IMG/VR virus record: IMGVR_UViG_3300017987_004445
Span: 1-60,010 of that record
Length of the DNA: 60,010 bases
Direction: 5' to 3' (one strand)
DNA from: a virus
In this document: positions 1-24,546 of the stretch, piece after piece
Layout: each line of letters starts with the position of its first letter
How positions within the stretch are numbered: position 1 is the stretch's first letter
The notes under the pieces: generated by a model
Databases searched by the model: none
Seen by the model: the letters and a program-made list of their open reading frames with translations, nothing else
Told to the model about the DNA's origin: nothing
Made by a program: the position numbers and the translations under genes

Positions 1-36
1 GTTTTTCTGCAATATGATAATGCGTGAAAAACAATA
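1..36. repeat. Left copy of 36-bp terminal overlap
   Basis: These 36 bases are identical to 59975-60010. A gene reads in frame across the join made by removing one copy, so this is best read as the overlap of a circular assembly of 59,974 bp and not as a biological repeat. Confidence 0.9.
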
Positions 37-98
37 AAGCACGTCGCAACAGCAACAACAGACCACAGGCACAGCCAAAAACGTTCTTCTCTATCCAT
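1..98 (-). CDS. 5' part of membrane-anchored small protein spanning the circular join
   Basis: The gene starts at ATG 96-98 behind a strong AAAGGAGG ribosome binding site, runs left to base 1, and continues from 59974 to a TAA at 59881-59883. The whole product is 63 residues. It begins MDREERFWLC, has one hydrophobic segment (about residues 8-28) and a polar C-terminal half with two cysteines. The form suggests a single-pass membrane protein with a small soluble tail. I do not recognise the family. It lies just downstream of the attC-like element at 149-206, so it occupies the last position of the cassette-like array, but I see no such element after it. The gene cannot be seen in a linear reading. 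Confidence 0.8.
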   Translation of the reverse strand, partial: MDREERFWLCLWSVVAVATCFIVFHALSYCRK

Positions 99-148
99 GA
101 TTCCTCCTTTGCGCCGAACTCAAGTAAAGTTCCTGCGCGGTTTATTTT

Positions 149-206
149 GGTTAACGTTCAGGGCTATACGATAGTGCGTAGCATTTTGTATAGCCTGTTG
201 TTAAAT
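149..206 (-). repeat. attC-like recombination site A (58 bp)
   Basis: On the minus strand this element runs from ATTTAAC to GTTAACC. Inside it, CAGGCTATAC (188-197) pairs with GTATAGCCCTG (159-169), leaving one bulged base, as extrahelical bases do in integron attC sites. It lies directly after the stop of the 219-479 gene. Its first four bases, ATTT, are the reverse complement of AAAT (531-528), which starts the same gene unit. This matches an integron cassette with its own attC. The GTTRRRY core is imperfect at one base. The alternative is a simple hairpin terminator, although there is no T tract. Confidence 0.6.
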
Positions 207-218
207 GTGCTACGCTAT

Positions 219-479
219 TCATTTACGCTCCCCAGTTTTGGCCGAATCCTTTTTTCTGTGGAGCGCCCTTGCTTCTTTCTCAATTCGCTTTTCTGCATCT
301 CGATTACATAACGAACATGAACCCCATTCAATATGACCAACATATTCCGTATCTCCAATTTTTACAACATGGCATCCTTCTTCTCTACCCATCATTAAAT
401 CACCCATTCCCATTGGGCCAAGCGAATGTCCACAAATAGGTTGCATTCGTAACGGCAAGAAAACTCGTTTTTGTTTCAT
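219..479 (-). CDS. Hypothetical protein, 86 aa (cassette-like gene 4)
   Basis: I place the start at ATG 477-479, where GAGGAG lies a few bases upstream; the frame stays open upstream to 521 but without a better site. The product begins MKQKRVFLPL, is basic and has four cysteines, including a CSLC pair near residue 58 that could bind a metal. I do not recognise a family. The gene sits in a unit bounded by AAAT at 531-528 and the attC-like site at 206-149, so it looks like the cargo of an integron-type cassette. It has no visible promoter of its own. Confidence 0.6.
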   Translation of the reverse strand: MKQKRVFLPLRMQPICGHSLGPMGMGDLMMGREEGCHVVKIGDTEYVGHIEWGSCSLCNRDAEKRIEKEARALHRKKDSAKTGERK

Positions 480-527
480 TTTTTCTCCTCGGCGCGACCT
501 CCCATAAACGAAAGAGGCCAAAATTGC

Positions 528-557
528 ATTTAACGTCAGGGCTACCTGGAGTTTGCC
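528..557 (-). repeat. Short attC-like element (30 bp)
   Basis: On the minus strand this element runs from GGCAAAC (557-551) to GTTAAAT (534-528), with a short CAGG/CCTG stem between them. It ends with a perfect GTTRRRY core, but it is only about half the size of the other sites and its left part overlaps the end of the 542-868 gene. It breaks the reciprocity rule: the unit begins ACCG while the element begins GGCA. It may be a deleted or hybrid attC site. Confidence 0.4.
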
Positions 558-868
558 ATTCGATTTAAAAATCCTTTACCTTTACAGTATGGACAATGTA
601 TATGACCCGCAACACCTCTACAGTGTTGGCAAATTTGGGCCGAGGCTTCCGAGCCAGGTAGCCCGCTGTTACCGGAAGCTTTTGGCGGTTCCTTAATGTG
701 TTCACGGCGATTTAGTTTTTCATCAACAGAAACAGCCCGATTTATTCTCTCTGTTAAATCCGAAGTAAAGCAACACCGACAAGGTTTTTTTTCGTTATCA
801 TCGTGCACCCCATAAACATTGCACCAATCTGCTATTTGTTCAACTACATCTGATAATGTTTCTATCAT
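542..868 (-). CDS. Small zinc-ribbon protein, 108 aa (cassette-like gene 3)
   Basis: The start ATG at 868 follows AGGAGG at good spacing. The product carries a CRCC cluster near residue 30 and a C-terminal C-x2-C...C-x2-C-x-G-x-G arrangement (CQHC, CPYC), which resembles the zinc-binding repeat of DnaJ proteins and of many small phage zinc ribbons. It probably binds one or two zinc ions; the partner is unknown. It is the third gene of the cassette-like array and lies between attC-like site B and the short element at 528-557. Its stop codon falls inside the short element, which may mean that the 3' end was remodelled. Confidence 0.7.
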   Translation of the reverse strand: MIETLSDVVEQIADWCNVYGVHDDNEKKPCRCCFTSDLTERINRAVSVDEKLNRREHIKEPPKASGNSGLPGSEASAQICQHCRGVAGHIHCPYCKGKGFLNRMANSR

Positions 869-908
869 AAGCCGTGAACCTCCTATTCATTTATGAGCCA
901 AAAATTTA

Positions 909-983
909 CGGTAACGGACTTGCAAGGGTGAAGCGCGAAGCGTTTGGGTGTAGCCCTGCGGAACCACCCTTGCGTAGTTAAGC
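909..983 (-). repeat. attC-like recombination site B (75 bp)
   Basis: On the minus strand the element starts GCTTAAC (983-977) and ends GTTACCG (915-909). GCAAGGGTG (973-965) pairs with CACCCTTGC (930-922). The stretch 912-979 is identical to 1286-1353 except for one base. The identity covers the AAC-to-GTT span, while the outer four-base flanks differ. The leading GCTT is the reverse complement of AAGC (1286-1283), the start of the same gene unit, as expected for an integron cassette. It overlaps the last bases of the 978-1247 gene. Confidence 0.7.
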
Positions 984-1247
984 GCATGTGTTTGCGTTCC
1001 TTAATTTATTTGGGGGCGATTTCAGTTTCGTAATTTTCAAAACACAGCACTTAGGTATTGTCATACGTCCCACCACTTGGTCGTTGCTATAACTTTGAAA
1101 AACGGTGATATATTTTTTATTATTCCTTTCTATAAATCCAACTGTACGAATTTGAACAGGAAGCATTGGTTGCATATCATCTATAAAATCCCAAGAGCTA
1201 CTACAACCCTTTGAATCTACCCAATCAATCACAATAAGCTGGTGCAT
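978..1247 (-). CDS. Hypothetical protein, 89 aa (cassette-like gene 2)
   Basis: The start is ATG 1245-1247, a short distance after a GGGGG stretch that may serve as a weak ribosome binding site. The product begins MHQLIVIDWV and has a compact alternating hydrophobic pattern that suggests a small all-beta or alpha/beta fold. I do not recognise a family. The gene fills one unit of the cassette-like array: it starts just inside the AAGC boundary left by site C and stops at site B. The reciprocal match of unit start and site B makes this the cleanest of the cassette-like units. Confidence 0.65.
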   Translation of the reverse strand: MHQLIVIDWVDSKGCSSSWDFIDDMQPMLPVQIRTVGFIERNNKKYITVFQSYSNDQVVGRMTIPKCCVLKITKLKSPPNKLRNANTCA

Positions 1248-1282
1248 TAAGCCCCCAAATCTAATTGATTAGCAAACATTGT

Positions 1283-1357
1283 GCTTAACGGACTTGCAAG
1301 GGTGAAGCGCGAAGCGTTTGGGTGTAGCCTTGCGGAACCACCCTTGCGTAGTTTGCC
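1283..1357 (-). repeat. attC-like recombination site C (75 bp)
   Basis: On the minus strand the element runs from GGCAAAC (1357-1351) to a perfect core GTTAAGC (1289-1283). The 9-bp arms lie at 1339-1347 and 1296-1304. It is the second copy of the 68-bp repeat (one mismatch to 912-979). The leading GGCA is the reverse complement of TGCC at 1727-1724, where a GTTTGCC core marks the likely start of the same unit. It follows the stop of the 1363-1677 gene by five bases. Confidence 0.7.
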
Positions 1358-1362
1358 GATAG

Positions 1363-1677
1363 TCACGCCGATTCCGATGTTGTTGCCAGCGGCATTTGGA
1401 TACCGTTTTTTGCGGCAAATTTTTCTGCATGAACGCGACAATAACAACGCTCTGCCCACGAAACACGGCCAGCGCGACCCGTAACATAGTCATAGGTGCA
1501 TCTAAATTCTGGTCGCAAGTCACAACCACGAACAGAGCAAGCATACCACTTGATATGCTCAGAATCGTTTTCGCGCACAGCCTTATCGTACCTACTTTGG
1601 TAATATTGCAATTTGTTTTCGCTGGCCGTGTAGAGTGGGCCACCCAAGTCGATATTGTGATTCCATGCTTTACCCAT
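1363..1677 (-). CDS. Cysteine-rich hypothetical protein, 104 aa (cassette-like gene 1)
   Basis: The start is ATG at 1677, behind TTTGGAGG; the frame stays open to 1689 but that start has no binding site. The product begins MGKAWNHNID and has cysteines spread over its C-terminal two thirds, including a CYC pair, so it may bind metal. I do not recognise the family. A longer overlapping frame (1269-1763) lacks a ribosome binding site and has a shadow-like composition, so I prefer this one. It is the first gene of the cassette-like array. Confidence 0.65.
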   Translation of the reverse strand: MGKAWNHNIDLGGPLYTASENKLQYYQSRYDKAVRENDSEHIKWYACSVRGCDLRPEFRCTYDYVTGRAGRVSWAERCYCRVHAEKFAAKNGIQMPLATTSESA

Positions 1678-1723
1678 GTTTTCCTCCAAATGCCGTTGGC
1701 ATAATTATTAAAGGCGTGATTTT

Positions 1724-1730
1724 GGCAAAC
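1724..1730 (-). other. GTTTGCC core: likely left border of the cassette-like array
   Basis: On the minus strand GTT|TGCC lies upstream of the 1363-1677 gene. TGCC is the reverse complement of the first four bases of site C (GGCA), so this looks like the entry point of the first cassette. There is no palindromic site before it, which would fit an attI-like or secondary insertion site. Confidence 0.45.
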
Positions 1731-1752
1731 TACTACCATTATGAACAACATC

Positions 1753-1944
1753 TTAACATACAATTCTTCGTTTGCGCCTTCTCTCCCAAGGAGTTAGCCT
1801 CTTCGGACATCCCTTGATTGAGTCTACAAGAACAACTCTATCTGCCGGACGCTCTGCATATAATCTTCCATCTTCAACCCATTTCCGGGCCGTACTTACG
1901 GAAACCTTGCGGAGCCTTGCCCATTGTGAAAGACGTAAAAGCAT
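1753..1944 (-). CDS. MerR/excisionase-type helix-turn-helix protein, 63 aa
   Basis: The start ATG at 1944 follows AAGGAAGG. The N-terminal half is a clear winged-helix pattern of the excisionase/MerR type: LSQWARLRKVSVSTARKW is followed by a GRL...VVLVD wing, and the C-terminus is very basic. Such proteins bind DNA as small architectural factors or regulators. No integrase is visible, so an excisionase role is not supported; control of the leftward operon is as likely. It directly follows the DUF551 gene (stop at 1945) and is the last gene before the cassette-like array. Confidence 0.75.
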   Translation of the reverse strand: MLLRLSQWARLRKVSVSTARKWVEDGRLYAERPADRVVLVDSIKGCPKRLTPWERRRKRRIVC

Positions 1945-2373
1945 CTATCCTTCCTTTGCCCGTGTGAGGGGGAGCCGACCAACCAACTCTGCGTTTTCCT
2001 TTTGTGCGACAGGGGAAGGCTCAAGCAACTTTTCTGCTTTATCCACAAGATCACCAATAGGGGTGCTGGTGTCGTATTCCTCATCGTTCCTGAACCTTTT
2101 TATAATTTCCCTCAAGACAGCCACCGCCTCTGCATTTTCCGACTGTGCGACAGGGGAAGGCGGTTTCGGAAGTTCCCTCCAGTGTGTAACGCCATTGTAA
2201 AAGCAATTGTTGCCTGCCCACAGTTTGTCGCTGTTAAAAAAGGCCCAAGCAACCGATCTGAGCCCATCGCTCGAAGTGAAGCATATCAGCTTTGTACCTA
2301 TCCCATCAGGCAAACTGTCCTTCACTGATACCCACTCCACCGCCTCTGCATTTTCCGGCGTTGCTTTCTCCAC
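1945..2373 (-). CDS. DUF551-containing protein, 142 aa
   Basis: The frame opens with GTG at 2373. The first 70 residues fit the DUF551 pattern (W.SV.D.LP, a central hydrophobic strand, then GVTHWRELP.PP), a small domain common in phages with unknown function. The rest contains a short motif three times (ENAEAV, SPVAQSENAEAV, SPVAQKENAELV). These copies are encoded by near-repeat DNA at about 1989-2021, 2132-2163 and 2342-2357 and probably act as linkers that expanded by slippage. The start is uncertain because no clear ribosome binding site precedes the GTG. Confidence 0.7.
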   Translation of the reverse strand: MEKATPENAEAVEWVSVKDSLPDGIGTKLICFTSSDGLRSVAWAFFNSDKLWAGNNCFYNGVTHWRELPKPPSPVAQSENAEAVAVLREIIKRFRNDEEYDTSTPIGDLVDKAEKLLEPSPVAQKENAELVGRLPLTRAKEG

Positions 2374-2384
2374 GGAAGGGGAGT

Positions 2385-2867
2385 TTAGTTTTTGTAATTT
2401 GATCCCTTTACTGATTTTACTAACCCTCCAATGTTTACGAGTGCTAGATTCGGCCGCTTCTCTAAATAATCTTTTAGAACCTGTATATCAAAGTCTATGT
2501 CACGGGCACCATTATAAAATCTTTCCAGGTTATGATACAGATATAGGTTAAAAACCTCTTGGTAGTCGATATTAAGTGGTTGAAGTAGTGGTTTTTGCTC
2601 AGTAAACGGGAACTGTGAGTGTTCGTAAAACTCAAAATACCGCTTGGATATAACCCGTTTCACCTTGATTTTTTTTTGTTTCCCTGATTCCTGATCTGTA
2701 ATCTCTTTGGTTCTTTCAGTGTGATAGTCCTTTCCCCATTGGCATTTACATACGTAGGATGATACATATGGCATAATATTTTTACCCATACCCTCCAAGC
2801 TGTACACGTTAATAAGACCCGTGTTGTTGCACAGCCTGCATACGTTAAAATCCTGCCACCAGCCCAT
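2385..2867 (-). CDS. Cysteine-motif protein, 160 aa, coupled to the DUF1376 gene
   Basis: The start ATG overlaps the stop of the upstream gene (TAATG at 2867), so translation is probably coupled. The first 45 residues hold C-x2-C-NNTG and CKC motifs that look like a zinc-binding module, followed by a charged middle and an aromatic-rich C-terminal half. I do not recognise the family. Position after a DUF1376 protein is where many phages place a helicase loader, but no Walker motif is present, so that role is not supported by sequence. Confidence 0.65.
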   Translation of the reverse strand: MGWWQDFNVCRLCNNTGLINVYSLEGMGKNIMPYVSSYVCKCQWGKDYHTERTKEITDQESGKQKKIKVKRVISKRYFEFYEHSQFPFTEQKPLLQPLNIDYQEVFNLYLYHNLERFYNGARDIDFDIQVLKDYLEKRPNLALVNIGGLVKSVKGSNYKN

Positions 2868-3532
2868 TATAAGTATCCTTTCGCTCGGGCTTCTTCTTCT
2901 GTTACGGTTTCAATCTCTTCTTCCTGCCTACCGCGCCCCTTGAAAGTGGTGTCGTTGTTTGCCCACCGCTTCAATCTTCTTTTAAGGTCCCAAGTCTTTT
3001 CCATCTGAAAGCGAACTTTGGTACGCGAGGGGTTGGGTTCAGTCCAATATTCAAAAAAGGCAGTAAGCATCTTCTCTGAATATTCTTTCTTAAATTCTAA
3101 GACTTTTCTTTTGAATATTTCTATTGCATCTTCTATTTCATTTGCTATTTCATCTTCAGCAGGATGTAACACTTCTGTACGTGCTTTTGTTTTTGTTTTG
3201 TTTTTCCTTGCTAAAGTTCTGATATCACTTATGTTAGAAACCTCTAAAAGACGCTCAGAGTAGTAACGGCCCTTATGTTTGCAACACTTTCCAAGCTCAA
3301 AAAAGGACAAAACTTCGGGCTTAATTTGCTCCCATTCTTGAGGTGAAACACGAGCATATACAGCAAGTACCTTATCATCCATTGGGAGGGTTGCTCTTGG
3401 CTCCTCTAACCAAGCTCTGCACAAGAGATACATATATGCTTTGATTACTTTACCAGAGGCCAGCTCAACCTTTCCCGATCCTAGCCAGTCCCTAACATAG
3501 AAAGAAAATGCGGGTGCTTTCATGTTATCCAT
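2867..3532 (-). CDS. DUF1376-like phage replication protein, 221 aa
   Basis: The N-terminal 95 residues (FSFYVRDWLGSG..., LLCRAW, then LA.YARVS..EW and FF..GK...RYY) match the DUF1376 pattern found in phage replication initiators, a winged-helix-like domain thought to bind origin DNA. The C-terminal half is charged, with a predicted coiled stretch. It is the first gene after the leftward promoter at 3659-3687. No strong Shine-Dalgarno sequence precedes ATG 3530-3532; the second ATG (codon 4) is an alternative. With no polymerase in the genome, it may recruit the host replisome. Confidence 0.7.
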   Translation of the reverse strand: MDNMKAPAFSFYVRDWLGSGKVELASGKVIKAYMYLLCRAWLEEPRATLPMDDKVLAVYARVSPQEWEQIKPEVLSFFELGKCCKHKGRYYSERLLEVSNISDIRTLARKNKTKTKARTEVLHPAEDEIANEIEDAIEIFKRKVLEFKKEYSEKMLTAFFEYWTEPNPSRTKVRFQMEKTWDLKRRLKRWANNDTTFKGRGRQEEEIETVTEEEARAKGYL

Positions 3533-3585
3533 AATAAATAACCAGTGGCCTATCCATATACCGTGTGCAATATATGAACAGACCG

Positions 3586-3602
3586 GCAGACGGTGAGTCT
3601 GC
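3586..3602. other. Small perfect hairpin in the leader of the 3652 transcript
   Basis: GCAGAC and GTCTGC form a 6-bp stem with a 5-base loop. It lies between the promoter at 3659-3687 and the start at 3532. A TTTT follows on the plus strand only, where no gene ends, so I treat it as a leader structure and not a terminator. Confidence 0.4.
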
Positions 3603-3658
3603 TTTTACTGGTATTCCTATATTCTGTTTCGGGATGCACACGTTTTGTTCACGATTAA

Positions 3659-3687
3659 AAGATAGTTAATGTGTTTCTACTTGTCAA
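3659..3687 (-). promoter_or_regulatory. Leftward sigma70-type promoter
   Basis: On the minus strand TTGACA (3687-3682), a 17-base spacer and TATCTT (3664-3659) predict a start near 3652, about 120 bases before the DUF1376 gene. It lies in the longest gap of the leftward block between the zinc-ribbon gene ending at 3778 and the gene starting at 3532. Confidence 0.7.
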
Positions 3688-3777
3688 GACCTTTATCCAT
3701 CCACCCCGATATAAACGACTGCACTGTACTTGGGTTCTTACTTACTATGGTATAGAGTTTATCTATCTGCTCAGATG

Positions 3778-3915
3778 TCAACTGCTTTTTTTCTTCCTCT
3801 CCCTCACATCCTTCTTCAAACACTTCGGGCACTTAGGATCTGGATAGCTGGACTTAAAGCGCCATCCGCAAGATTTACATACATATTTCCTACACTTAGG
3901 GCTGTATTTAGACAT
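3778..3915 (-). CDS. Tiny zinc-ribbon protein, 45 aa
   Basis: ATG at 3915 lies inside the last codons of the upstream nuclease gene (GATGTCTAA), with AGAGG just before it, so translation is coupled. The product begins MSKYSPKCRK and has C-x2-C and C-x2-C pairs (CKSC at 13-16, CPKC at 29-32) with a basic tail: a minimal zinc ribbon, perhaps nucleic-acid binding. It may be a detachable accessory to the nuclease upstream. Confidence 0.7.
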   Translation of the reverse strand: MSKYSPKCRKYVCKSCGWRFKSSYPDPKCPKCLKKDVRERKKKSS

Positions 3916-5821
3916 CCCAGCCTCTTTGTTTTATGAGGTCATTTCTTTGGTCTACCAGCTTCGCATAATATTGTTTCAATTCGGTCTTTGCGTTTTTAAC
4001 CTCATGCCACCATTCCGCCATTCTTTCTTTTGTTTTTGCATCATTTTCAAGCCATTCTTTGTATTCAATATATAAAGCCTCTTCTTGTGGAGGGGCTTCC
4101 TTGGGTTGGGATGTTTCAACTTTTGTTGAGTCTGCGTTTATGCGCTCATTAGTAAGAAATAGTAGATCCTCTTTTTCTGGATCGACATCTGGGAGATCAA
4201 GTAACACCTTTTCTGGGGCTATGTTTGCAACCTTCTGTATGTCTGCAAGCCTAAAATCTCCAGTGATATGTAAGATATAATGATTGCTTTTGGCCTGATT
4301 TCCCTTACTATCTTTAAAAACGGTTTCATGTTTATGCCTTTCAAGCGTTAGGGGAATCATATGGCATCTGCCGCATACAGCCTTTACATACCCCATGCAC
4401 GAATTAAGATTGACTATGGAATGATAGGACCCGGTGTTTATTTGCCATACGCCAACACCTGGGAGTTGTGGAATTAGAACATTCAAAGTTCCAACTTCGC
4501 TACATTCTTTGGCTTTATAGTAAGGGCATTCCTTGCCCGCGCATTTGACTTTTGGGTTGGGCTTATCCTCTATAACCTCTAATTCTTCGGTAAATTTTGG
4601 GTCACTGCAAATGGCCGTCTCGCCGTCTCCTTTGCATTTTAGAGAAGCACTTGAGCCATAGCGCTTGTAGAATTGCGGAAAGTCAATATCCGGGTTCCCT
4701 GTTGGAAGCATAAAATCAAAACGCTTTGGTTTTTCTCCATATAGCTTATGAAATTCTTGTATCATGCGCTGTCGCTCTTCTTCGTTTGGTGTTGCGGGGT
4801 CAAGGATGAAATAGTCAACTTCTTTTGGTCGTTCCTTGCCATTACCTGTTGGCACCTTGATTCCAAGCCTGATTTTGCCCAACCGGGGCAAGCGCTTGAT
4901 TTCAGACAATCCTTTTATAGCCATTTCTTCTTTCTCCTTTTCCTGTTTAAGGTATTTACCATATGGGCAGAATTCTGCTACCTCGCAATATTTTTGGCAG
5001 CGCAATCCATCCCAGTTTTCTTTTCTATTACAGGTTTGGTGCCAATATCCTTGTTTTAAAGCCTTTAAAAGACGCTCGCGTTTGTATTTGAAATACCACA
5101 GCACTTCGTCATCTGGGAGGATTGGTACGTCAAAATAGTATACGTTTCTAAAAACCCCTCGGCTTCTGGCTATGTATAGGCCACCATCTCTAACAATGGC
5201 TTGGATTTTTAATCTTTTAATCTTGCGCTGATGCTTCTTTTCCCATTCGATGCGATATTTGTTTAACTGATAAATCCATTCCCACATATCCACGGATTCT
5301 TCATTGCGCACCAAAACTTGTCGCATTCGCGGCTCACCCTTGCGCTTGCCGCTTTTATATATTTCTCCTGTGGGTTCTTGTTTGGTCGTAAATCCGAGCG
5401 CTTTTGCAACCTTGTATGAGCCCGATGTTTTGTAATCGGCCATGGTTGGAATACTGTCTTCGATTTCCACCACATCTGTAATCCCGGTTTCATCCACATC
5501 TGGTCCCTCGAAACGTTCTTCTAATGTTGAATATTCGTCTTCTGCTGATTCGAGGGCACCATGTCCTTTTGACCCCAACACACGAAAAGCAACATCTTGG
5601 GGAGAAATAGCATAATCCTTGGTGAGGCGCAAAAAAGCCAGCATTGTTCCGTTTATAAGTTGTGTTGTTGAGGGCTTACCTGTCCAAGGTCTTTCGCTTG
5701 CAGCCATTTGCAGATATGAGCGCGTGGCACAACGTTCACTCATACGGCAACCACCCTCTTTTAAGCATTCTGAAATTAAGATTCTCTCAGTGTCCGGGCA
5801 TATGAACCATTTGGTAGGCAT
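3908..5821 (-). CDS. Cas4/RecB-like Fe-S nuclease fused to a phiC31 gp3-like domain
   Basis: The 637-residue product has two halves. Residues 1-290 look like a PD-(D/E)XK nuclease of the Cas4/AddB kind: D116 in TDVVE, DYK at 129-131, then YQLNKY at 184-189 (the QxxxY motif). Cysteines at 8, 20, 25 and 31 and at 264, 275, 279 and 285 could hold an Fe-S cluster. From about residue 300 it follows the pattern of the phiC31 gp3 family (RLGKIRLG near the start, several CxxC pairs, then PGVGVWQI). In phiC31 gp3 is the recombination directionality factor, but no serine integrase is visible here. The fusion suggests a role in DNA processing during replication or recombination. ATG at 5821 overlaps the upstream stop. 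Confidence 0.7.
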   Translation of the reverse strand: MPTKWFICPDTERILISECLKEGGCRMSERCATRSYLQMAASERPWTGKPSTTQLINGTMLAFLRLTKDYAISPQDVAFRVLGSKGHGALESAEDEYSTLEERFEGPDVDETGITDVVEIEDSIPTMADYKTSGSYKVAKALGFTTKQEPTGEIYKSGKRKGEPRMRQVLVRNEESVDMWEWIYQLNKYRIEWEKKHQRKIKRLKIQAIVRDGGLYIARSRGVFRNVYYFDVPILPDDEVLWYFKYKRERLLKALKQGYWHQTCNRKENWDGLRCQKYCEVAEFCPYGKYLKQEKEKEEMAIKGLSEIKRLPRLGKIRLGIKVPTGNGKERPKEVDYFILDPATPNEEERQRMIQEFHKLYGEKPKRFDFMLPTGNPDIDFPQFYKRYGSSASLKCKGDGETAICSDPKFTEELEVIEDKPNPKVKCAGKECPYYKAKECSEVGTLNVLIPQLPGVGVWQINTGSYHSIVNLNSCMGYVKAVCGRCHMIPLTLERHKHETVFKDSKGNQAKSNHYILHITGDFRLADIQKVANIAPEKVLLDLPDVDPEKEDLLFLTNERINADSTKVETSQPKEAPPQEEALYIEYKEWLENDAKTKERMAEWWHEVKNAKTELKQYYAKLVDQRNDLIKQRGWDV

Positions 5822-12184: not shown

Positions 12185-12345
12185 GCTGGTGCCCGCGTTG
12201 TGGCAATATGTGTACCCACAAGATATATACCCAAAGTTGGTCTTGTTGCACTATATGTTGTAATCATCATATGTATTGGTCGCCAAAAATGCTTGATAAG
12301 ATAAGGGAAATCCAAGATTCTATATTTAAAACTGAGGAGGAGTGA
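12163..12345 (+). CDS. Small zinc-finger protein, 60 aa
   Basis: TTG 12163 is the likely start, inside the end of the previous gene. Motifs are CPRCGNMC at residues 10-17 and CCTICC at 28-33, a dense zinc-binding pattern, followed by a short helix. Its TGA overlaps the ATG of the GroES-like gene (TGATG). Function unknown. Confidence 0.6.
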   Translation: MEKIYKVGWCPRCGNMCTHKIYTQSWSCCTICCNHHMYWSPKMLDKIREIQDSIFKTEEE

Positions 12346-12797
12346 TGTTAGAGTCTGATATGTGCTACATCCGCGTTAGTCCTTTAAGCGACCAGCTTTT
12401 GGTGAGAGTTGCGGTAATGCCGGAAACTTTAGGTGGTATTGTAATACCTGCCACCAAGAAATACGATGAATTTTTCCGCCGCGCTAAGGTGTTGGCTATT
12501 GGTCCCGATGTTAAGGATTTGAAGGTTGGGGATATGATATATCTTCCGGCTCCTGCTGGTGCTGAAGTTGAGGTTTTGGCTGCAATGCGCGATACCAAGA
12601 AAGAATATGGGGGTGCATGTTTTTTGGTTCATCGCAAGGACTTGGCAGCTAAGATCGAATTTGTAGGAAAAGAGAATCTTAATGAGTCCAATGTTGTTGT
12701 GGGCTTGAGCGACCGCAAGCAGCAAATGCTTCAGAAAGAGAAGGTGGAGCACGTGCAGGGAGCAAAGACACGACAGGCATTGAATCTTAAAAATTAG
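12345..12797 (+). CDS. GroES-like co-chaperonin
   Basis: The product (150 aa from ATG 12345, behind GAGGAGG) follows the GroES fold: SPLSDQLLVRV at the start, GGIVIPATKK (the mobile loop that contacts GroEL), VLAIGPDVKDLKVGD, and FLVHRKDLAAKI at the end of the domain. Phages such as T4 (gp31) use such proteins to adapt host GroEL for capsid folding, which is the likely role here. About 40 extra charged residues follow the domain. It lies in the packaging operon, ahead of the structural genes. Confidence 0.85.
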   Translation: MLESDMCYIRVSPLSDQLLVRVAVMPETLGGIVIPATKKYDEFFRRAKVLAIGPDVKDLKVGDMIYLPAPAGAEVEVLAAMRDTKKEYGGACFLVHRKDLAAKIEFVGKENLNESNVVVGLSDRKQQMLQKEKVEHVQGAKTRQALNLKN

Positions 12798-12805
12798 GAG
12801 TTTAC

Positions 12806-13648
12806 ATGAAGTGTTTCCACCACAACGACCTCGATGGCTACTGCTCTGGGGCCATAGTTAAATTAGCCCATCCCGAATGCGAATGTTTTGAAATAAACTA
12901 TGATATTCCTTTTCCTCATGATAAGATTGAGAAGAACGAACAGGTATTCGTGGTGGATTACAGCTTTTCAGGCAAGGGCAACGATGATTTTAACAAGCTT
13001 TTAGCTAAAACCCAGTATGTGACTTGGATTGACCACCACAAAACATCTATTGAACAGCATCCTGACAAGGCCCATTTATCAGGTATTCGAGTTGATGATA
13101 AGCCCGCTGCTTGCGAATTGTGCTGGGAACACTTCTTCCCCGGGAGTGTCGTGCCCGTGGCTGTGAAGCTTTTGGGTGACTATGACACCTGGACCTTTGC
13201 GTATGGCACCAAAACAAAGGAATTTCAGGAGGGTATGAAGGTTTTAGACCATGGCCCCGAGGCTGAGGTTTGGAAGCATATTCTGAGCACGCAGCCAACT
13301 GTCAATGAGGTTATTGCCCGAATTAGGCATGACGGCATAGTGTGTCTTGTGTACAAAGAACAGAGATCCAAGGCGCTTATGCGTGCCATATCCTTTGCCA
13401 CGGAGTTTGAAGGGTACAAGGCCATTGCCTGTAATGTGGCACTGGCAAATAGTCAGATGTTTGACAGTGTATCCGAGGATTATGATATCATGCTACCTTT
13501 TTCGTTTAACGGATACATTTACACTGTAAGTATCTACACCTTGAAGCCTGATATTGATTGCTCGGAGATAGCCAAGAAATATGGTGGCGGCGGCCACAGG
13601 CAGGCTTCTGGGTTCCAGTGTGATAAATTGCCATTTGAGAGAACATGA
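12806..13648 (+). CDS. DHH/DHHA1 family phosphoesterase
   Basis: Catalytic motifs are complete: HHNDLDGYCSGA (residues 5-16), VVDYSF, WIDHHKT, LGDYDTW and the DHHA1 signature GGGGHRQASGF near the C-terminus. The family includes oligoribonuclease NrnA and cyclic-dinucleotide phosphodiesterases. It lacks RecJ-type extra domains, so cleavage of short RNAs, pAp or signalling nucleotides is more likely than long DNA. It overlaps the first glycan gene by four bases. It could supply nucleotides or remove a defence signal; both are inference. pAp removal would fit the sulfotransferases downstream. Confidence 0.85.
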   Translation: MKCFHHNDLDGYCSGAIVKLAHPECECFEINYDIPFPHDKIEKNEQVFVVDYSFSGKGNDDFNKLLAKTQYVTWIDHHKTSIEQHPDKAHLSGIRVDDKPAACELCWEHFFPGSVVPVAVKLLGDYDTWTFAYGTKTKEFQEGMKVLDHGPEAEVWKHILSTQPTVNEVIARIRHDGIVCLVYKEQRSKALMRAISFATEFEGYKAIACNVALANSQMFDSVSEDYDIMLPFSFNGYIYTVSIYTLKPDIDCSEIAKKYGGGGHRQASGFQCDKLPFERT

Positions 13649-14280
13649 AGACTCTACTTATTAAGCAACCAGCGGGCCTTGGTGATGTCTTTTATTGCCA
13701 GAAAATAGGTAAGGTTTTTGCCGAAGCTGGATGGAAAGTATATTGGCCAGTAATATCACAATACACTTGGCTTGAGAAGTATTTGCGCGGCCCTATAAAA
13801 TATGTGGATGCTCCGTGCCGGCCAGATAAGATTTTGGATCTTCAAAACGCATATCACATTTTAGGGAAAACGAAACCAGAGGAAATGCTACCGGCAAAGT
13901 ATGAGTTGGCTGAAATAGGATCATGGAATTGGGCACAGTATTTTGAGTTTGAGAAGCCAGTTGACCAAGAGCCAGTGCCAGAGGGGGAGTATGCACTAAT
14001 AAATCTTGGTTTTGCTAGCCCGCCCAACGAAGAAAAAGCTGCTGTGGACTGCATGACGCGCATGCCAAAGATATTTATTGAACACAGGCCCACGGTATTT
14101 CATTGGTGTGATGCAATAATGAATGCAGCGGAGTTACATTTTGTTGATACATGTTTTACATATTTAGCTGAAAAACTGCCAATAAAAGCCAAGCGCATGG
14201 TATTGTATCCACGAAAGCCATATCATGATCATGTAATTACAAAAGTTATTTGGAAAAGACCTTGGGAATACCGTGAATAA
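13645..14280 (+). CDS. GT-B/GT9-like glycosyltransferase, short form
   Basis: The first 60 residues (LLIKQPAGLGDVFYCQKIGK, then W.VYWPVISQYTWLEKYL) resemble the N-terminal Rossmann domain of heptosyltransferase-type (GT9) enzymes, and the end (AIMNAAELHFVDTCFTYLAEKL) resembles the donor-side segment of GT-B proteins. At 211 residues it is shorter than usual (about 330), so it may be a reduced transferase. It is the first gene of the glycan block and is translationally coupled at both ends. Confidence 0.55.
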   Translation: MKTLLIKQPAGLGDVFYCQKIGKVFAEAGWKVYWPVISQYTWLEKYLRGPIKYVDAPCRPDKILDLQNAYHILGKTKPEEMLPAKYELAEIGSWNWAQYFEFEKPVDQEPVPEGEYALINLGFASPPNEEKAAVDCMTRMPKIFIEHRPTVFHWCDAIMNAAELHFVDTCFTYLAEKLPIKAKRMVLYPRKPYHDHVITKVIWKRPWEYRE

Positions 14281-14872
14281 AATTGAAGGTAGAATATTAG
14301 TTTTTGGTGGTAATGGTGATATTGGTAAGCTTGTTCCTGGTATTAAAATTCCGCGTGAGCAGGTAAATGTAACGAACTACCTTGAAGTCAAGAGATGTAT
14401 ACACTCCCACCGTCCTTCTGCTGTTGTGGATTGTGCTGGTGTATCTTTCCCGCAACCAATAAAGTCGTGTAATGTTGGAAAATGGTGCAATGAAATAAAT
14501 ACAAATTTTATAGGCAGCTTTAATATTGCCAGTGCAAGTATTGAGAACGAGGTGTCTAAAATGGTTTTTATATCATCTTATGCGGGGTTGCATGGGAAAG
14601 CGAAGCGAAGTGGATATTGTGCATCAAAGGCTGGGGTTATCTCTCTTGTCCAGTCTATTGCTGAGGAAGGGCATGAGGTTTATTGTATAAGTCCTTCTCG
14701 TGTGGACACAAAGATGGTGGGGCCTCCGGAGAAGGGAGAGGATATGACAAAGCGGTTGCGCCCACAGGAAATAGTAGATTTGATAGGAGAATGCCTGAAT
14801 GGAGTGTATAAATCAGGGAGTAATATAGTAATACGCAAAAATGGAGATAAAACTGTAAAAGTGGTAATGTAG
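14273..14872 (+). CDS. Short-chain dehydrogenase/reductase
   Basis: VFGGNGDIG near the N-terminus is the NAD(P)-binding loop, with a later NTNFIGSFNIA and the catalytic SSYAGLHG...SGYCASKAG (Ser, Tyr, Lys). At 199 residues it is a compact classical SDR. It probably reduces or oxidises a sugar nucleotide or a related small molecule. GTG 14273 overlaps the previous gene by eight bases. Confidence 0.75.
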   Translation: MNKIEGRILVFGGNGDIGKLVPGIKIPREQVNVTNYLEVKRCIHSHRPSAVVDCAGVSFPQPIKSCNVGKWCNEINTNFIGSFNIASASIENEVSKMVFISSYAGLHGKAKRSGYCASKAGVISLVQSIAEEGHEVYCISPSRVDTKMVGPPEKGEDMTKRLRPQEIVDLIGECLNGVYKSGSNIVIRKNGDKTVKVVM

Positions 14873-14873
14873 G

Positions 14874-15842
14874 ATGAAATATCTAATTACTGGAATAACT
14901 GGTTTTGCTGGGCCTCATTTGGCCAGTTTATTGGTTTCTAAAGGCCATAAGGTATATGGCTTGGTTCGCTGTAGTAATGGTAGGCATCAGGATATCCGGG
15001 ATGTGGTTGAAGATGGAATATTTAAAGAGATTGAGTTCTTATATGGTGATTTAAATGATAAAGCCCAAATAAATAAAATTTTTCACGATCATCATTTCGA
15101 TGGTGCATTTCATTTAGCTGCTCAATCTCATCCCCCCACATCTTTTGTTAGCCCGATGGCAACTTACAAAGCTAATGTGATGGGTAGCATAAATTTAATT
15201 GAGTCCATAAAAAGGAATAATAGGGAATGTAAGGTAATGTTTTGTTCCACAAGTGAAGTTTATGGGGACACCATTAAGGAAGGACAACTAATAAAAGAAA
15301 CTGATAGAATTGGCCCCGCAAACCCCTATGGTGTATCAAAGGCTGATATTGATTTGTACATGCAAATGCTTATGCACAATAAAATGTTGAAAGGGTTTAT
15401 TACAAGGGCGTTTTCTCATACAGGGCCTCGGCGTGGTTGCAATTTTAGCATATCATCTGATGCGCACCAGCTTGCGGGAATGAAAGATGGCGAAACCCTG
15501 CTTGTTGGGAACTTGGGAACAATAAGAGTGGTAATGGATGTAAGGGATACAGTGAGAGCATACGCTTTACTGATGGAAACGGACCAATCTGAGGGTAAGA
15601 TCTTTAATATTTGCGGCGATACTCCGCGAAAAATGTCATATTTCACAGATGTTCTGATAGAATTAAGTGGATTACAGGATATAAAAATGGCCATAAATCC
15701 GAAGTTTTACAGATCAATTGACATCCACTATCAGCATGGAGACACTACGGCTCTAAAACAGGTAGTGGATTGGAAACCTGAGATAGATATTAAAACTACG
15801 TTATATGACTTGTTAGAGTATTGGAGGAAGAAAATTGGGTGA
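14874..15842 (+). CDS. GDP-mannose dehydratase / 6-deoxy-4-keto sugar reductase family
   Basis: An extended SDR with TGITGFAGPHL, YGDLND, STSEVYG and NPYGVSK (Tyr/Lys), followed by FSHTGPRRG and VMDVRDTVRAY. This layout is that of GDP-mannose 4,6-dehydratase (Gmd) and GDP-4-keto-6-deoxymannose reductase (Rmd). Length (322) is normal. It would make or use a 6-deoxyhexose nucleotide. CDP-glucose dehydratase is a less likely reading, yet relevant because RfbH- and RfbE-like enzymes lie downstream. Confidence 0.8.
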   Translation: MKYLITGITGFAGPHLASLLVSKGHKVYGLVRCSNGRHQDIRDVVEDGIFKEIEFLYGDLNDKAQINKIFHDHHFDGAFHLAAQSHPPTSFVSPMATYKANVMGSINLIESIKRNNRECKVMFCSTSEVYGDTIKEGQLIKETDRIGPANPYGVSKADIDLYMQMLMHNKMLKGFITRAFSHTGPRRGCNFSISSDAHQLAGMKDGETLLVGNLGTIRVVMDVRDTVRAYALLMETDQSEGKIFNICGDTPRKMSYFTDVLIELSGLQDIKMAINPKFYRSIDIHYQHGDTTALKQVVDWKPEIDIKTTLYDLLEYWRKKIG

Positions 15843-16440
15843 TTTAAATATTCATGACCTACAGGCTTATATAGATAAATATGGATGTAATATATTTATT
15901 GAGACAGGCACCGGTATTGGGGATGGTATTGCTCATGCGCTGAAGTACCCATTCGATTTCTTTTATTCCATAGAAATAAATAAGGAATTATATAAAAGGG
16001 CGTATGAGAAAATATATCCCAACAATAAAGTTGTCTTAATTAACAAACCTTCAATTGAAGGTCTACAGGCGGTCTTTGGTAATATCATATCTGAACATAC
16101 GTGTCTGTACTGGCTCGACGCACATTTCCCGGGTGCAGACTTTCAACTTGCTTCTTATAGTGATGAGATAGCACACAACCTCAAATATCCGCTTATTCAT
16201 GAGCTGAGGTTGATTCGCAATCGAAGGAAAGGGAAAAAAGATGTTTATATTATTGATGATCTTCAAATGATGGAAGAAGGCGAATATGAGCTTAAGATGA
16301 CAGATGAGTTTTTAGACAAGCATTTTCAGCGTGAGATAAGGCTGGAGATATCTCAGATGTTTAAAGATACGCATGATTTCAGAAAAGATAATCGGCATCA
16401 GGGGTTTTTGATTCTTACTCCTAAGCGTGAAGAGAACTAA
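15835..16440 (+). CDS. Methyltransferase-like protein, 201 aa
   Basis: IFIETGTGIGDGIAHAL is a motif I-like loop of class I SAM methyltransferases, followed by FFYSIEINKELY (acidic residue for ribose contact) and YWLDAHFPG. It resembles FkbM-type and other sugar-associated methyltransferases but is short. TTG 15835 lies behind GGAGG and overlaps the previous stop. It may methylate a sugar of the glycan built by this block. Confidence 0.6.
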   Translation: MGDLNIHDLQAYIDKYGCNIFIETGTGIGDGIAHALKYPFDFFYSIEINKELYKRAYEKIYPNNKVVLINKPSIEGLQAVFGNIISEHTCLYWLDAHFPGADFQLASYSDEIAHNLKYPLIHELRLIRNRRKGKKDVYIIDDLQMMEEGEYELKMTDEFLDKHFQREIRLEISQMFKDTHDFRKDNRHQGFLILTPKREEN

Positions 16441-17217
16441 ATGGAGAAGATAAGTGTAATAATTCAGGGTGAGGTATGGCCCAAGACGCTGGAAAATGCA
16501 GAATTTTATCTGCAAGAATTTCCGTTTGTTGACGATGTGGTTATTTCGTGTTGGGAACCTGATGCATATATTCCTTCAGCTCCTGGTGTAAAGGTGGTTA
16601 GAACAAGAAAATTTATACAAGTAGGGTACAGTAATTGCAATTATCAGTTAGTTAGCACAATAAATGGCCTGAAAGCGGCTAGGAATAGATTGTGTGTAAA
16701 AACACGATCAGACCAGCGTATAATATCTCTAGATAGAGTGTATGACCATGCCATGAGCCATGAAGTTGAACCCATACGCTATTTGGGCGGTGACATTAGG
16801 GAGTTTCCTGTATATTGTCTTGCATTACACAAGATATATCCATTCCACATGCAGGACCATCTTATATTTGGTGCCAAGCCGGACATGCTTAAGATATTTG
16901 ATATTCCATTGTATCCAGCTCGGACATTAGATCCAAACGGATTTGTTGGTTTTGGTAAGCAACCGAGGGAACCGATTTATATAGGGGCTTATTATTGTTC
17001 TTTATTTGATGCTCGGGTTAAGAAATTTATTGATAATTATGAAGAATATTTGTGTGACCCCAACCATCAGAAAAAGGAAGTTAAGGTTGTTGACTCCCAG
17101 ATAACAAGTAAGATTTTTCATCCGCTTCCGAGATTGGATATATATTGGGAAAAATTTAATAGCGCGTATTGGTTTGAACGCTATGAACAGTCTGGAGAAT
17201 GTTATTATGAAGCTTGA
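16441..17217 (+). CDS. WavE-family LPS-type glycosyltransferase
   Basis: The product follows the WavE pattern: SVIIQGEV at the start, VVISCWEPD (the I.S.W motif), then NYQLVSTINGLKAARNRLCVKTRSDQ with the K.R.D metal/nucleotide-binding stretch, and QDHLIFGAK. WavE proteins take part in LPS core or capsule synthesis in Vibrio and others. Length (258) is slightly short. It starts directly at the previous stop and overlaps the following kinase gene. Confidence 0.8.
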   Translation: MEKISVIIQGEVWPKTLENAEFYLQEFPFVDDVVISCWEPDAYIPSAPGVKVVRTRKFIQVGYSNCNYQLVSTINGLKAARNRLCVKTRSDQRIISLDRVYDHAMSHEVEPIRYLGGDIREFPVYCLALHKIYPFHMQDHLIFGAKPDMLKIFDIPLYPARTLDPNGFVGFGKQPREPIYIGAYYCSLFDARVKKFIDNYEEYLCDPNHQKKEVKVVDSQITSKIFHPLPRLDIYWEKFNSAYWFERYEQSGECYYEA

Positions 17218-17980
17218 AGGACGCGGAGGTAATAAAGTGCAGTTGTTGGTTAGAAAGACTTTTTCTTCTGAGTCTTTATGCCAATTGCAGGCCAACAAGA
17301 TGATAAAATTAAGAGAAATTGCCAATGAATGTGGTCTTTTCTATGTGCCTGAGATATACAAGATTGAAGGAAACTTTTACGAAATGGAGTATGTAGAAGG
17401 GCGCGAACTCAATGATACATATATGGAATATGAGCCAGAGCATTTGGGAGAAATATTGATTCGTATAATGAAGTCGATAGGAACATATAAGCAATCTGGT
17501 GAAGAGGGTATTTTGGATTATGTGGAAAAGCAAATGACGCAAGGTCACTGTAAGCATCTATGGGACAGGGAACAAGCGGTTAATTATTCGCGTATATTGG
17601 AACGGACTTGTAAATGGAGGTTTTCGCATGGAGATTTTACTTTTGACAATATAATAGATGACGGTAAGCGATTTACACTTATAGATTGTATTTCTCATGA
17701 AAATGGCGAAAGCTTGATTTGGGATGCTGTGAAGCTTTTACAGACCACAGCCATTAACTGGAATTCAATAAAGCATAATGGATTTGCGGGCAAGCGCACA
17801 TTTAAGATGGTTGCTTTAAACGAATATTTTGTAAATAAATTCAGTCCACTTTTTGGCCCGAATATTTTAAAGCTGTATTTTAAATATATACTGTGTATGG
17901 TTGCTGGCTTTACCAATCAGGCTTTACTTTTAAACTATGCTAAAAAATCTGAAGCAGGGCTCTTGGAATTGGTATTATGA
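17207..17980 (+). CDS. APH-fold phosphotransferase (choline/sugar kinase-like)
   Basis: Residues near 140 read SHGDFTFDNIIDD and then LIDC: the Brenner-type HGDxxxxN and metal-binding D of aminoglycoside/choline kinases. ATG 17207 is preferred because GGAG lies nine bases upstream; the frame is open from 17174. Substrates could be a sugar or choline/ethanolamine, which would fit a phospho-decorated glycan. It overlaps the KdsC-like gene by four bases. Confidence 0.7.
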   Translation: MKLEGRGGNKVQLLVRKTFSSESLCQLQANKMIKLREIANECGLFYVPEIYKIEGNFYEMEYVEGRELNDTYMEYEPEHLGEILIRIMKSIGTYKQSGEEGILDYVEKQMTQGHCKHLWDREQAVNYSRILERTCKWRFSHGDFTFDNIIDDGKRFTLIDCISHENGESLIWDAVKLLQTTAINWNSIKHNGFAGKRTFKMVALNEYFVNKFSPLFGPNILKLYFKYILCMVAGFTNQALLLNYAKKSEAGLLELVL

Positions 17981-18519
17981 TTAAGTTGTTGATAGTTGAT
18001 GTTGATGGGGTGATGACAAATGGCAAGAAGTATTTTGCCAGAGACGGGGAGGTTGTAGCCAAAGGATTTTGTGATAAAGATTGGACAGCAATAAAGAGAT
18101 TTAAATCTATTGGGGTGGATGTTGTGTTGCTGACTGGTGATGCGTACAATGCTTGGATACTGGACAAAAGAGCTATTGATGTTGTTGTTAATAGAGGCGA
18201 TGGCAAGCACAGGGATAAAGCCCTTTATTTAAGTGAGATTTGTGATCGTTTCTGCGTTCGCATTGAGCAAATTGCTTATGTGGGTGATGACTTTTATGAT
18301 ATATCTATTATGAAACTTGTGGGATATGCTTATTGCCCAAAGGATTCAATCGATATGGTGAAACATTGTGAGAATGTCAGGATATTAGGATATAATGGAG
18401 GGGACAATTTTTTGTCGCATTTATTTGAGCATTTGGAATCTTGTGGCTTGATTCCGCGTAAATCGTATGATGAGATATCGGTGAAAATGTACGAACTTGA
18501 CGAGAAAGAGGTATTTTGA
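17977..18519 (+). CDS. KdsC-like HAD phosphatase
   Basis: DVDGVMTNG (nucleophile D8, acid/base D10), LLTGD (motif II) and YVGDDFYDISIMK (motif IV) are intact, and the small cap-less form of 180 residues matches KDO-8-phosphate phosphatase and the related phosphatases of sialic-acid-like and heptose pathways. It probably dephosphorylates a 2-keto or phospho-sugar made in this block. It directly precedes the nucleotidyltransferase-RpiB fusion, so the two likely act on one sugar. Confidence 0.85.
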   Translation: MIKLLIVDVDGVMTNGKKYFARDGEVVAKGFCDKDWTAIKRFKSIGVDVVLLTGDAYNAWILDKRAIDVVVNRGDGKHRDKALYLSEICDRFCVRIEQIAYVGDDFYDISIMKLVGYAYCPKDSIDMVKHCENVRILGYNGGDNFLSHLFEHLESCGLIPRKSYDEISVKMYELDEKEVF

Positions 18520-19685
18520 AGAAGTATAACTTGCTGTTGCCTATCGCTGGTAGGGCTCAAAGATTTGTTGATGCTGGATACACGATGCCAAAACCATTGA
18601 TAATGACCGGATATAAACACATGATAGACTGGTCATTGCAGTGTATAAATATTGAGGAATGTCATCTAATATTTATAGTAAGGTTAGAGCATGTATATAA
18701 TTTTGGGATTGATGAAATATTGAGGCAAAAATACGGTTCTGATATTGAAGTATTGACTGTTGATAAAATTACTGGTGGCGCAGCAGAGACGTGTTTGTAT
18801 GCAAAACCTGTCTTGGATGAAAATTTACCTCTTGCAATCTACACACCTGATGTTTGGTTTGATCCTCATTTTTCGATTGATATGGTTGGGGATGAAGCTG
18901 GTTTTTTGCTAACCTTTTTAGCCAATAATCCAGCCCATAGCTATTCATTGTTAGACAATGATAAGAAAATACTAAAGGTTGCAGAAAAAGAAGTCATTTC
19001 TGAACATGCAAATATTGGCTTGTATTACTTTAAAAGTGCTTCTCTGTTTATAAGATATGCAGAGAAAATGATTAATGAAGGCATAAAGAGCAAAAGCGAA
19101 TATTATGTGGCCCCAATATATAACATGATGATAACTGATGGGCATCTTGTTAGGGGATTGGATGTACAGACAGTACATGTTCTAGGAACCCCAGAGGCTC
19201 ATGGCTTCTTTTGTAAGAGGGTATTATGCAAGTTTGGGGATAAACCTCTTGCCATATCTTGCGACCATTCAGGATATGAATTTAAGGCTTTAGCTCTTAG
19301 AATATTGGAAAACAACGGGATTAAATTTATAGATGTAGGCACATACATGGATCGACCGTGTGATTATTACGATTATGTCAGCCAATGTGCTGATTTAATG
19401 AGATCTGGTTCTTGTGATTATTCCATCTCTTTTTGCCGGACAGGACAGGGAGTGAATATTTGCGCTAATAAATTTAGCGGCATAACGTCTGCTTTAGTCT
19501 TTGATGAATACACTGCTGAATATGCTATAAAACATAATTGTGCAAATCATTTTGCCATACCTACAAAGTACGTTAATGCAGAGATATTTAACAAAATGGT
19601 GGGCTTGTGGAAGAGAATTGGTTTTGAAGGCGGTCGTCATTTTACGAGAATAAGCAAATACGATGTTCATATCACAAACACATAA
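18516..19685 (+). CDS. Sugar nucleotidyltransferase fused to RpiB-type isomerase
   Basis: Residues 1-235 form a nucleotidyltransferase of the RmlA/GlmU kind (PIAGRAQRF at 9-17, PKPLI at 25-29, YTPDVWFD with the metal Asp at about 109-116). Residues 245-389 are a whole RpiB/LacAB isomerase: SCDHSGYEFK, DVGTY, FCRTGQGVNICANK, TAEYAIKHNCAN and GGRHFTRI. The catalytic Cys (307) is kept, but the usual CGTG reads CRTG. One polypeptide may thus isomerise a phospho-sugar and charge it to a nucleotide, with the KdsC-like phosphatase just upstream. I know of no common family with this order. A frame shift joining two genes is not suggested, as the frame is open throughout. Confidence 0.85.
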   Translation: MKKYNLLLPIAGRAQRFVDAGYTMPKPLIMTGYKHMIDWSLQCINIEECHLIFIVRLEHVYNFGIDEILRQKYGSDIEVLTVDKITGGAAETCLYAKPVLDENLPLAIYTPDVWFDPHFSIDMVGDEAGFLLTFLANNPAHSYSLLDNDKKILKVAEKEVISEHANIGLYYFKSASLFIRYAEKMINEGIKSKSEYYVAPIYNMMITDGHLVRGLDVQTVHVLGTPEAHGFFCKRVLCKFGDKPLAISCDHSGYEFKALALRILENNGIKFIDVGTYMDRPCDYYDYVSQCADLMRSGSCDYSISFCRTGQGVNICANKFSGITSALVFDEYTAEYAIKHNCANHFAIPTKYVNAEIFNKMVGLWKRIGFEGGRHFTRISKYDVHITNT

Positions 19686-20250
19686 GTTGGTTTTTGTCCA
19701 TATACCAAAAACTGGAGGCTGCTCTATTTTTTATCAATTGAAGGAACTGCTTGGTGAGAGAGAGTATCCGGCCCCCAAGCCTGATATATTTCACATGACT
19801 ATATCTGATTTACGGGGTCTTTTCCCAGAAGTATCTTCGTATTTTAAATTTACTATAGTAAGACATCCTCTTAGCAGATTTGTATCCACGTATAATTACT
19901 TGGCCAAATTGCCAGAGCGTAAATGGTGGAATACTTACCAAAAGAGAAGAAAGGATACCACTGATATGTTTGCTGAGGTTGATTTAGGCGATGTGATGTG
20001 GATGCCTCAGTATAAGTTTGTTAGAGGTGGTTATGACTCCAGAGATGGGGTGGATTATATTGGTAAATTTGAGGATTATAGTGGAGCTATAAAGCATGTT
20101 AATTCTGAAAAGGATTTGAATCTTGACCCAGAAGTTGTTATAAATAAAACCGCAAAGGCCAATAAGTTGGACTTGCCCATGGATAATGTTCGTGAATTTG
20201 TATGGGCGGTCTACAAGAAGGATTTTGAGATGTTTGATTATAGACTATAG
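19663..20250 (+). CDS. Sulfotransferase family 2-like enzyme
   Basis: VHIPKTGG at residues 12-19 is the PAPS 5'-phosphosulfate loop and IVRHPLSRFVS (about 65-75) the 3'-phosphate loop of carbohydrate sulfotransferases. At 195 residues it is compact but complete. It would transfer sulfate from PAPS to a sugar of the glycan. It overlaps the preceding gene by 23 bases. PAPS-making enzymes are not seen, so the host must supply the donor. Confidence 0.8.
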   Translation: MFISQTHKLVFVHIPKTGGCSIFYQLKELLGEREYPAPKPDIFHMTISDLRGLFPEVSSYFKFTIVRHPLSRFVSTYNYLAKLPERKWWNTYQKRRKDTTDMFAEVDLGDVMWMPQYKFVRGGYDSRDGVDYIGKFEDYSGAIKHVNSEKDLNLDPEVVINKTAKANKLDLPMDNVREFVWAVYKKDFEMFDYRL

Positions 20251-20269
20251 ATTTAGGAGGATGAGATCA

Positions 20270-24314: not shown

Positions 24315-24546
24315 TATAGGTGATATCGTAGAAAAATTGGTGATTGAAAATATTAAAATTGCTCATTTGAAGCAACAATTGTCTACCTTATCTGAAGGTA
24401 GCGCGGAATATTCGGTGATATATACCAAAATGATGGTTTTGAATAAAAACCGGAGTGTGATTATTGCGGCGTTGGATGAAAAGGTTGAAAGGGTTGCCAG
24501 TGGCAGAGAAAAAAACAGGCTGCTTGAAATTATCAAAACTTATTGA
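24307..24546 (+). CDS. Small helical protein, 79 aa (DUF4254-like N-terminus)
   Basis: ATG 24307 is chosen; the frame is open from 24283. The start IGDIVEKLVIENIKIAHLK resembles the first helix of small proteins (DUF4254-like) that often occur next to glycosyltransferases. It may be the first half of a split version, with the gene at 24500-24724 as the second. No enzyme motif is seen. Confidence 0.5.
   Translation: MLSIGDIVEKLVIENIKIAHLKQQLSTLSEGSAEYSVIYTKMMVLNKNRSVIIAALDEKVERVASGREKNRLLEIIKTY

What the first reader, a model, noticed from the sequence alone, without database searches (positions are those of the whole stretch)
149..1730. An integron-type gene-cassette array inside a phage genome
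Seen: four small leftward genes are each followed by a palindromic element whose outer bases are AAC and GTT (149-206, 528-557, 909-983, 1283-1357). Elements B and C are identical, apart from one base, across the AAC-to-GTT span but differ outside it. Unit starts and element starts match as reverse complements: TGCC (1727-1724) with GGCA of site C; AAGC (1286-1283) with GCTT of site B; AAAT (531-528) with ATTT of site A. Known: in integrons the cassette begins with RRRY after GTT, and its own attC begins with the complementary RYYY. Three of four testable units obey this; chance for each is about 1 in 256. Inferred: cassettes were captured from an integron, possibly of the host. Cargo in phages could spread or trap cassettes. 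No integrase is present.
Basis: partly seen in the sequence, partly recalled or inferred. Interest (0 to 1): 0.93.

Follow-up and report, generated by a model that had tools for sequence, protein, structure and literature searches.

The report
Divergent integron cassette array in phage
A complete virus (bacteriophage) genome from a metagenome carries four small genes packaged as movable integron cassettes, with a clear boundary signature although their recombination sites are too unusual for the attC models built here to recognise.

Summary
Four small leftward genes each end in a foldable AAC...GTT element. With that correction all four units, not three, begin and end with complementary four-base boxes (TGCC/GGCA, AAGC/GCTT, ACCG/CGGT, AAAT/ATTT). 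The match runs across units (4/4), never within a site (0/4): the signature of integron cassettes that move as circles. A blind scan finds a chain of three linked units; 200 shuffles and about 1 Mb of control DNA never exceed one at the main threshold, whereas DNA beside integron integrases does. All four sites share the attC-typical C before GTT.

Two covariance models built here (34 and 147 attC sites) nevertheless miss the sites (best 9 bits), and B and C lack the usual extrahelical base: a non-canonical array. The genome has no integrase. One cassette gene belongs to a small phage protein family, so simple capture of host genes is not established. Integrase-less arrays in phages were described in 2023 (PMC9892861); the site type is the new variant. 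In passing I found phage genomes that encode their own IntI with attC arrays.

The parts
149..206 (-). attC-like site A (core 153-202, boxes ATTT / AACC); end of the array
   Evidence: best covariance-model hit of the first 3 kb but only 8.6-9.0 bits
528..674 (-). attC-like site A' (core 532-670, boxes CGGT / AAAT), overlapping the 3' end of the cassette 2 ORF
   Evidence: 11-bp perfect arms, geometry scan; flanks complete unit 3
909..983 (-). attC-like site B (core 913-979, boxes GCTT / ACCG)
1283..1357 (-). attC-like site C (core 1287-1353, boxes GGCA / AAGC), core one base different from B
1724..1730 (-). half-site D, GTT-TGCC: first cassette boundary, probable attI- or attG-like entry point (base before GTT is A, not C)
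   Evidence: sequence; TGCC complements GGCA of site C
1289..1729 (-). cassette 4 (nearest D), gene 1363-1677, 104 aa, no family found
   Evidence: boundary boxes TGCC/GGCA
915..1288 (-). cassette 3, gene 978-1247, 89 aa, small phage protein family
   Evidence: boxes AAGC/GCTT; phrog_25889 E=7e-4; profile of phage homologues E=2.5e-12
534..914 (-). cassette 2, gene 542-868, 108 aa, CxxC zinc-ribbon-like C-terminus encoded within site A'
   Evidence: boxes ACCG/CGGT
155..533 (-). cassette 1, gene 219-479, 86 aa, no family found
   Evidence: boxes AAAT/ATTT

Best explanation
149-1730 is an array of four integron-type gene cassettes without an integrase (a CALIN) in a closed-circular tailed-phage genome, with attC sites of a divergent type. 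Shown: each unit holds one gene in the same direction, ends in a foldable AAC...GTT site, and carries complementary 4-base boxes at its two ends, so that each unit closed into a circle would rebuild a 7-bp R stem. Inferred: the cassettes were inserted between two phage genes by an IntI-type tyrosine recombinase acting on the folded + strand and cutting G|TT, supplied in trans by the host or a co-infecting phage; site D was the original attI- or attG-like entry point; the genes are read from the surrounding leftward phage operon.
For: Cross-unit box complementarity 4/4, wrong pairings 0/12, within-site 0/4. Blind chain test positive here, negative in shuffles and control DNA, positive beside IntI genes. 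All four sites read CGTT on the - strand like canonical attC, which fixes the gene-sense orientation. With own boxes restored the sites fold with R stem, unpaired spacer and L stem; the + strand is the more stable in A, B and C. One gene per unit, all in one direction, each preceded by a purine-rich ribosome-binding-site-like stretch. Precedent: phage-borne attC sites recombine with IntI1 (PMC9892861).
Against: Two attC covariance models that work on controls do not recognise the sites. B and C lack the extrahelical base called absolutely conserved in PMC2727003. Two of four unit boxes (TGCC, ACCG) break RRRY, though about half of comparable units beside IntI genes do so too. No integrase in the genome and no source integron found.
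Confidence: 0.82

Rival explanations
1. Relic array: once canonical attC cassettes captured from a host integron, now decayed so that models no longer see the sites and no recombinase uses them.
For: No model hit; no integrase; site A keeps a weak 9-bit resemblance.
Against: Perfect 9-11 bp arms and 4/4 perfect boxes, B and C cores 66/67 identical: random decay would break arms and boxes before erasing the model match.
Confidence: 0.1
2. A different folded-site recombination system, not IntI, that happens to use 7-bp boxes with a GTT core.
For: Sites fall outside both attC models and B/C lack the extrahelical base.
Against: AAC/GTT core, C before GTT, four-base variable box and unpaired spacers all coincide with IntI sites.
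Confidence: 0.06
3. Plain repeated hairpins: terminators, REP-like or other palindromic repeats downstream of unrelated genes, box matches by chance.
For: Hairpins lie after genes; B and C are copies of one sequence.
Against: Boxes match across units and not within sites; no T-run, and no terminator-like match on the gene strand at the sites; p about 6e-10; chains absent from shuffles and controls.
Confidence: 0.02

Closest known systems
CALINs (attC clusters lacking an integrase) in virulent phages, e.g. Tetrasphaera phage TJE1 (Qi et al. 2023, PMC9892861)
   Same: Integrase-less array of single-gene cassettes in one direction inside a tailed-phage genome
   Different: TJE1 sites are recognised by the attC model (31-37 bits); the window's are not (at most 9 bits)
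Sedentary chromosomal integrons with homogeneous attC sites (Vibrio type)
   Same: Near-identical site cores (B and C) behind different genes, differing only in their boxes
   Different: No intI or attI, four cassettes only, and A and A' are of other sequence
Phage-encoded integrons found here (L048, L145 and relatives)
   Same: Cassettes in phages; short left and longer right spacer in several sites
   Different: They carry their own IntI, their sites score 16-42 bits, and in L048 the genes run opposite to the site orientation; no shared genes with the window except two weak matches

Membership tests
Integron cassette array (CALIN) | Complementary R'' and R' boxes at the two ends of each cassette | tested here: met
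   4/4 units, 0/12 wrong pairings; chain test
Integron cassette array (CALIN) | Two or more attC sites recognised by an attC covariance model | tested here: not met
   No hit with R1 or R2; filters off, A 8.6-9.0 bits, B 3.3 bits. The published IntegronFinder and HattCI models were not available here
Integron cassette array (CALIN) | AAC...GTT core with an imperfect palindrome and unpaired central spacer | tested here: met
   All four sites
Integron cassette array (CALIN) | GTTRRRY consensus box | tested here: inconclusive
   Two of four unit starts fit (AAGC, AAAT), TGCC and ACCG do not; 30 of 63 units beside IntI genes fit strictly
Integron cassette array (CALIN) | Extrahelical base in the L'' arm | tested here: not met
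   None in the 9-bp stems of B and C; A has one, on the other arm
Integron cassette array (CALIN) | Conserved C before GTT on the gene-sense strand | tested here: met
   4/4 sites
Integron cassette array (CALIN) | Usually one ORF per cassette, genes co-oriented | tested here: met
   Four ORFs on the - strand, one per unit
Integron cassette array (CALIN) | Recombination by an IntI | not testable with these tools
   Needs a bench assay
Complete integron | intI gene | tested here: not met
   No IntI match in G000

The most novel reading that the evidence does not exclude
Tailed phages keep small phage genes in cassette form and exchange them through an unrecognised, divergent class of attC sites served by an integrase supplied in trans, so that integron-like shuffling is a native route of phage gene exchange that attC searches miss.
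Probability: 0.25. Interest if true: 0.85.

Novelty: new variant of a known kind. Interest (0 to 1): 0.52.

Why it matters
Surveys of integron cassettes in viruses rely on attC models. This array is invisible to the two models built here, yet its cassette boundaries are clear from the paired boxes alone. If that holds elsewhere, phage-borne cassettes are undercounted and a boundary test that needs no site model could reveal them. It also bears on whether phages merely carry host cassettes or run genes of their own as cassettes.

Tried and rejected
The 68-bp repeat and its two arms in viral and genome collections: nothing. DNA of 1-4000 in phages and plasmids: nothing at E 1e-5; cassette proteins there: nothing at E 0.01; cassettes 3 and 4 in viral contigs: nothing. 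Rfam at gathering scores: no hit. Terminator and REP readings rejected because the boxes pair across units. A relative of the structural module, a 98-kb IMG/VR phage (G001), has no chain of units and no attC hit, but it is too distant (42% portal identity) to count as the empty site. Similarity of the sites to 1.8 Mb of integron loci: only chance-level matches. Host assignment failed: no tRNA, no host-linked match found.

Full report
What is there. The window is one complete IMG/VR virus record with a 36-base direct terminal repeat and a reading frame that continues across the junction. It is a tailed phage: terminase subunits, portal, amidase. Its closest structural relatives found are two IMG/VR contigs at 42-43% portal identity. 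At 149-1730, four leftward genes of 86-108 aa are each followed by an AAC...GTT hairpin, and a half-site GTT-TGCC stands at the upstream end.

A geometry scan that ignored the flanks placed the second element at 528-674, with perfect 11-bp arms, instead of the 30-base hairpin at 528-557. Its outer left box is then CGGT, the complement of ACCG with which that unit starts. All four units therefore obey the rule, not three.

Why it is more than chance. The unit starts are TGCC, AAGC, ACCG and AAAT; the unit ends are GGCA, GCTT, CGGT and ATTT. Only the true pairing matches (4/4; 0/12 otherwise), and no site's own two boxes match each other (0/4). The match stops after 4, 4, 4 and 5 bases. The rate for random GTT/AAC pairs in this genome is 0.005. 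A blind scan for hairpins linked by such boxes gives a chain of three in the window and at most one in 200 dinucleotide shuffles; it gives 1 unit in 802 kb downstream of IntI genes, but 75 units with chains up to six in 442 kb upstream of IntI genes, where real arrays lie. In a control set of about 1 Mb the longest chain is one at stem thresholds 12, 14 and 16; at threshold 10 the controls reach three once, against four in the window.

What it works like. In integrons a cassette is a circle cut at G|TT; each circle has a site with a complete 7-bp R stem, and insertion into an array splits that stem between neighbours (established knowledge of integrons; background in PMC2727003 and PMC9892861). 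The window shows this pattern in every unit. All four sites read CGTT on the - strand, matching the nearly invariant C of canonical sites, so the + strand would be the bottom strand and the genes have the usual orientation. Folding with each cassette's own boxes restored gives the 7-bp R stem, unpaired spacer and L stem in A, B and C, the + strand being more stable by 0.8-1.6 kcal/mol; A' forms the same outer stem but with the - strand slightly more stable. The array sits between two co-directed phage genes, so expression from the phage operon is a reasonable inference.

Where it fails the family test. I built an attC covariance model from 34 sites taken next to IntI genes and from class 1 integrons. 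It finds 59 matches in 15 records, including three sites in phage TJE1 as in the published account; extended to 147 sites, it still finds sites almost only upstream of IntI on the expected strand. Neither model finds the window's sites. With filters off, A is the best hit in its 3 kb but only at 8.6-9.0 bits, and B appears at 3.3 bits. B and C lack the extrahelical base of the L'' arm, described as absolutely conserved (PMC2727003). So the array works like an integron cassette array, but its sites are not canonical attC sites. Decay is a poor explanation because arms and boxes are intact.

Origin. No integrase lies in the genome. The repeat was not found in any collection searched, so a host source is not shown. 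Cassette 3 encodes a member of a small protein family of Komagataeibacter and Pelagibacter phages: phrog_25889 at 7e-4, and a profile built from those phage proteins finds only this ORF, at 2.5e-12 (the profile members were found with the same query, so the value is optimistic). At least one cassette is therefore of phage type. The G+C content of the array equals that of the genome.

Context and side discovery. Qi et al. 2023 found 17 integrase-less arrays in 10,705 phage genomes and showed that five of six tested sites recombine with IntI1 (PMC9892861), so the kind is known. While looking for an integrase I found IMG/VR phage contigs with their own IntI of 387-388 aa, a viral-only clade in the tree made here (support 100/100). 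In the two best examined, IntI lies upstream of terminase and portal genes and beside attC sites with DNA-methyltransferase genes among them (L048; L145). They suggest that cassette systems can be native to phages and that a co-infecting phage is a possible source of integrase; none is shown to act on the window's sites.

Verdict. A real integron-type cassette array in a phage, with divergent sites: a new variant of a known kind, of moderate interest. The mechanism beyond the boundary signature is inferred.

Noticed in passing
L048 309-5020, L145 98-11309; also L043-L047 and L146-L158: IMG/VR phage contigs encode their own IntI-type integrase (387-388 aa in the core group, viral-only clade) beside attC sites and upstream of terminase and portal genes: complete integrons that look native to phage genomes. 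In L048 the genes run opposite to the attC orientation.
   Followed up: partly
window 12342-30236: Large block of sugar-nucleotide and surface-polysaccharide genes (GDP-mannose dehydratase-like, WavE, DegT aminotransferase, glycosyltransferases, radical SAM) next to a chaperonin-10-like gene at 12342-12797, inside the phage.
   Followed up: no
window 57645-57775: Two stable hairpins (CCCGTGGCTTCAGCCATGGG, CCCACTGCTTTAGCGGTGGG; fold z = -3.5) that resemble the end palindromes of IS200/IS605-type elements from memory; no transposase looked for.
   Followed up: no
window 3908-5821: 637-aa protein with a Gp3-like domain (PF18897, recombination directionality factor-like, E = 1.7e-48).
   Followed up: no
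window 1980-2364: Imperfect 28-39 base direct repeats inside the DUF551 gene 1945-2373.
   Followed up: no
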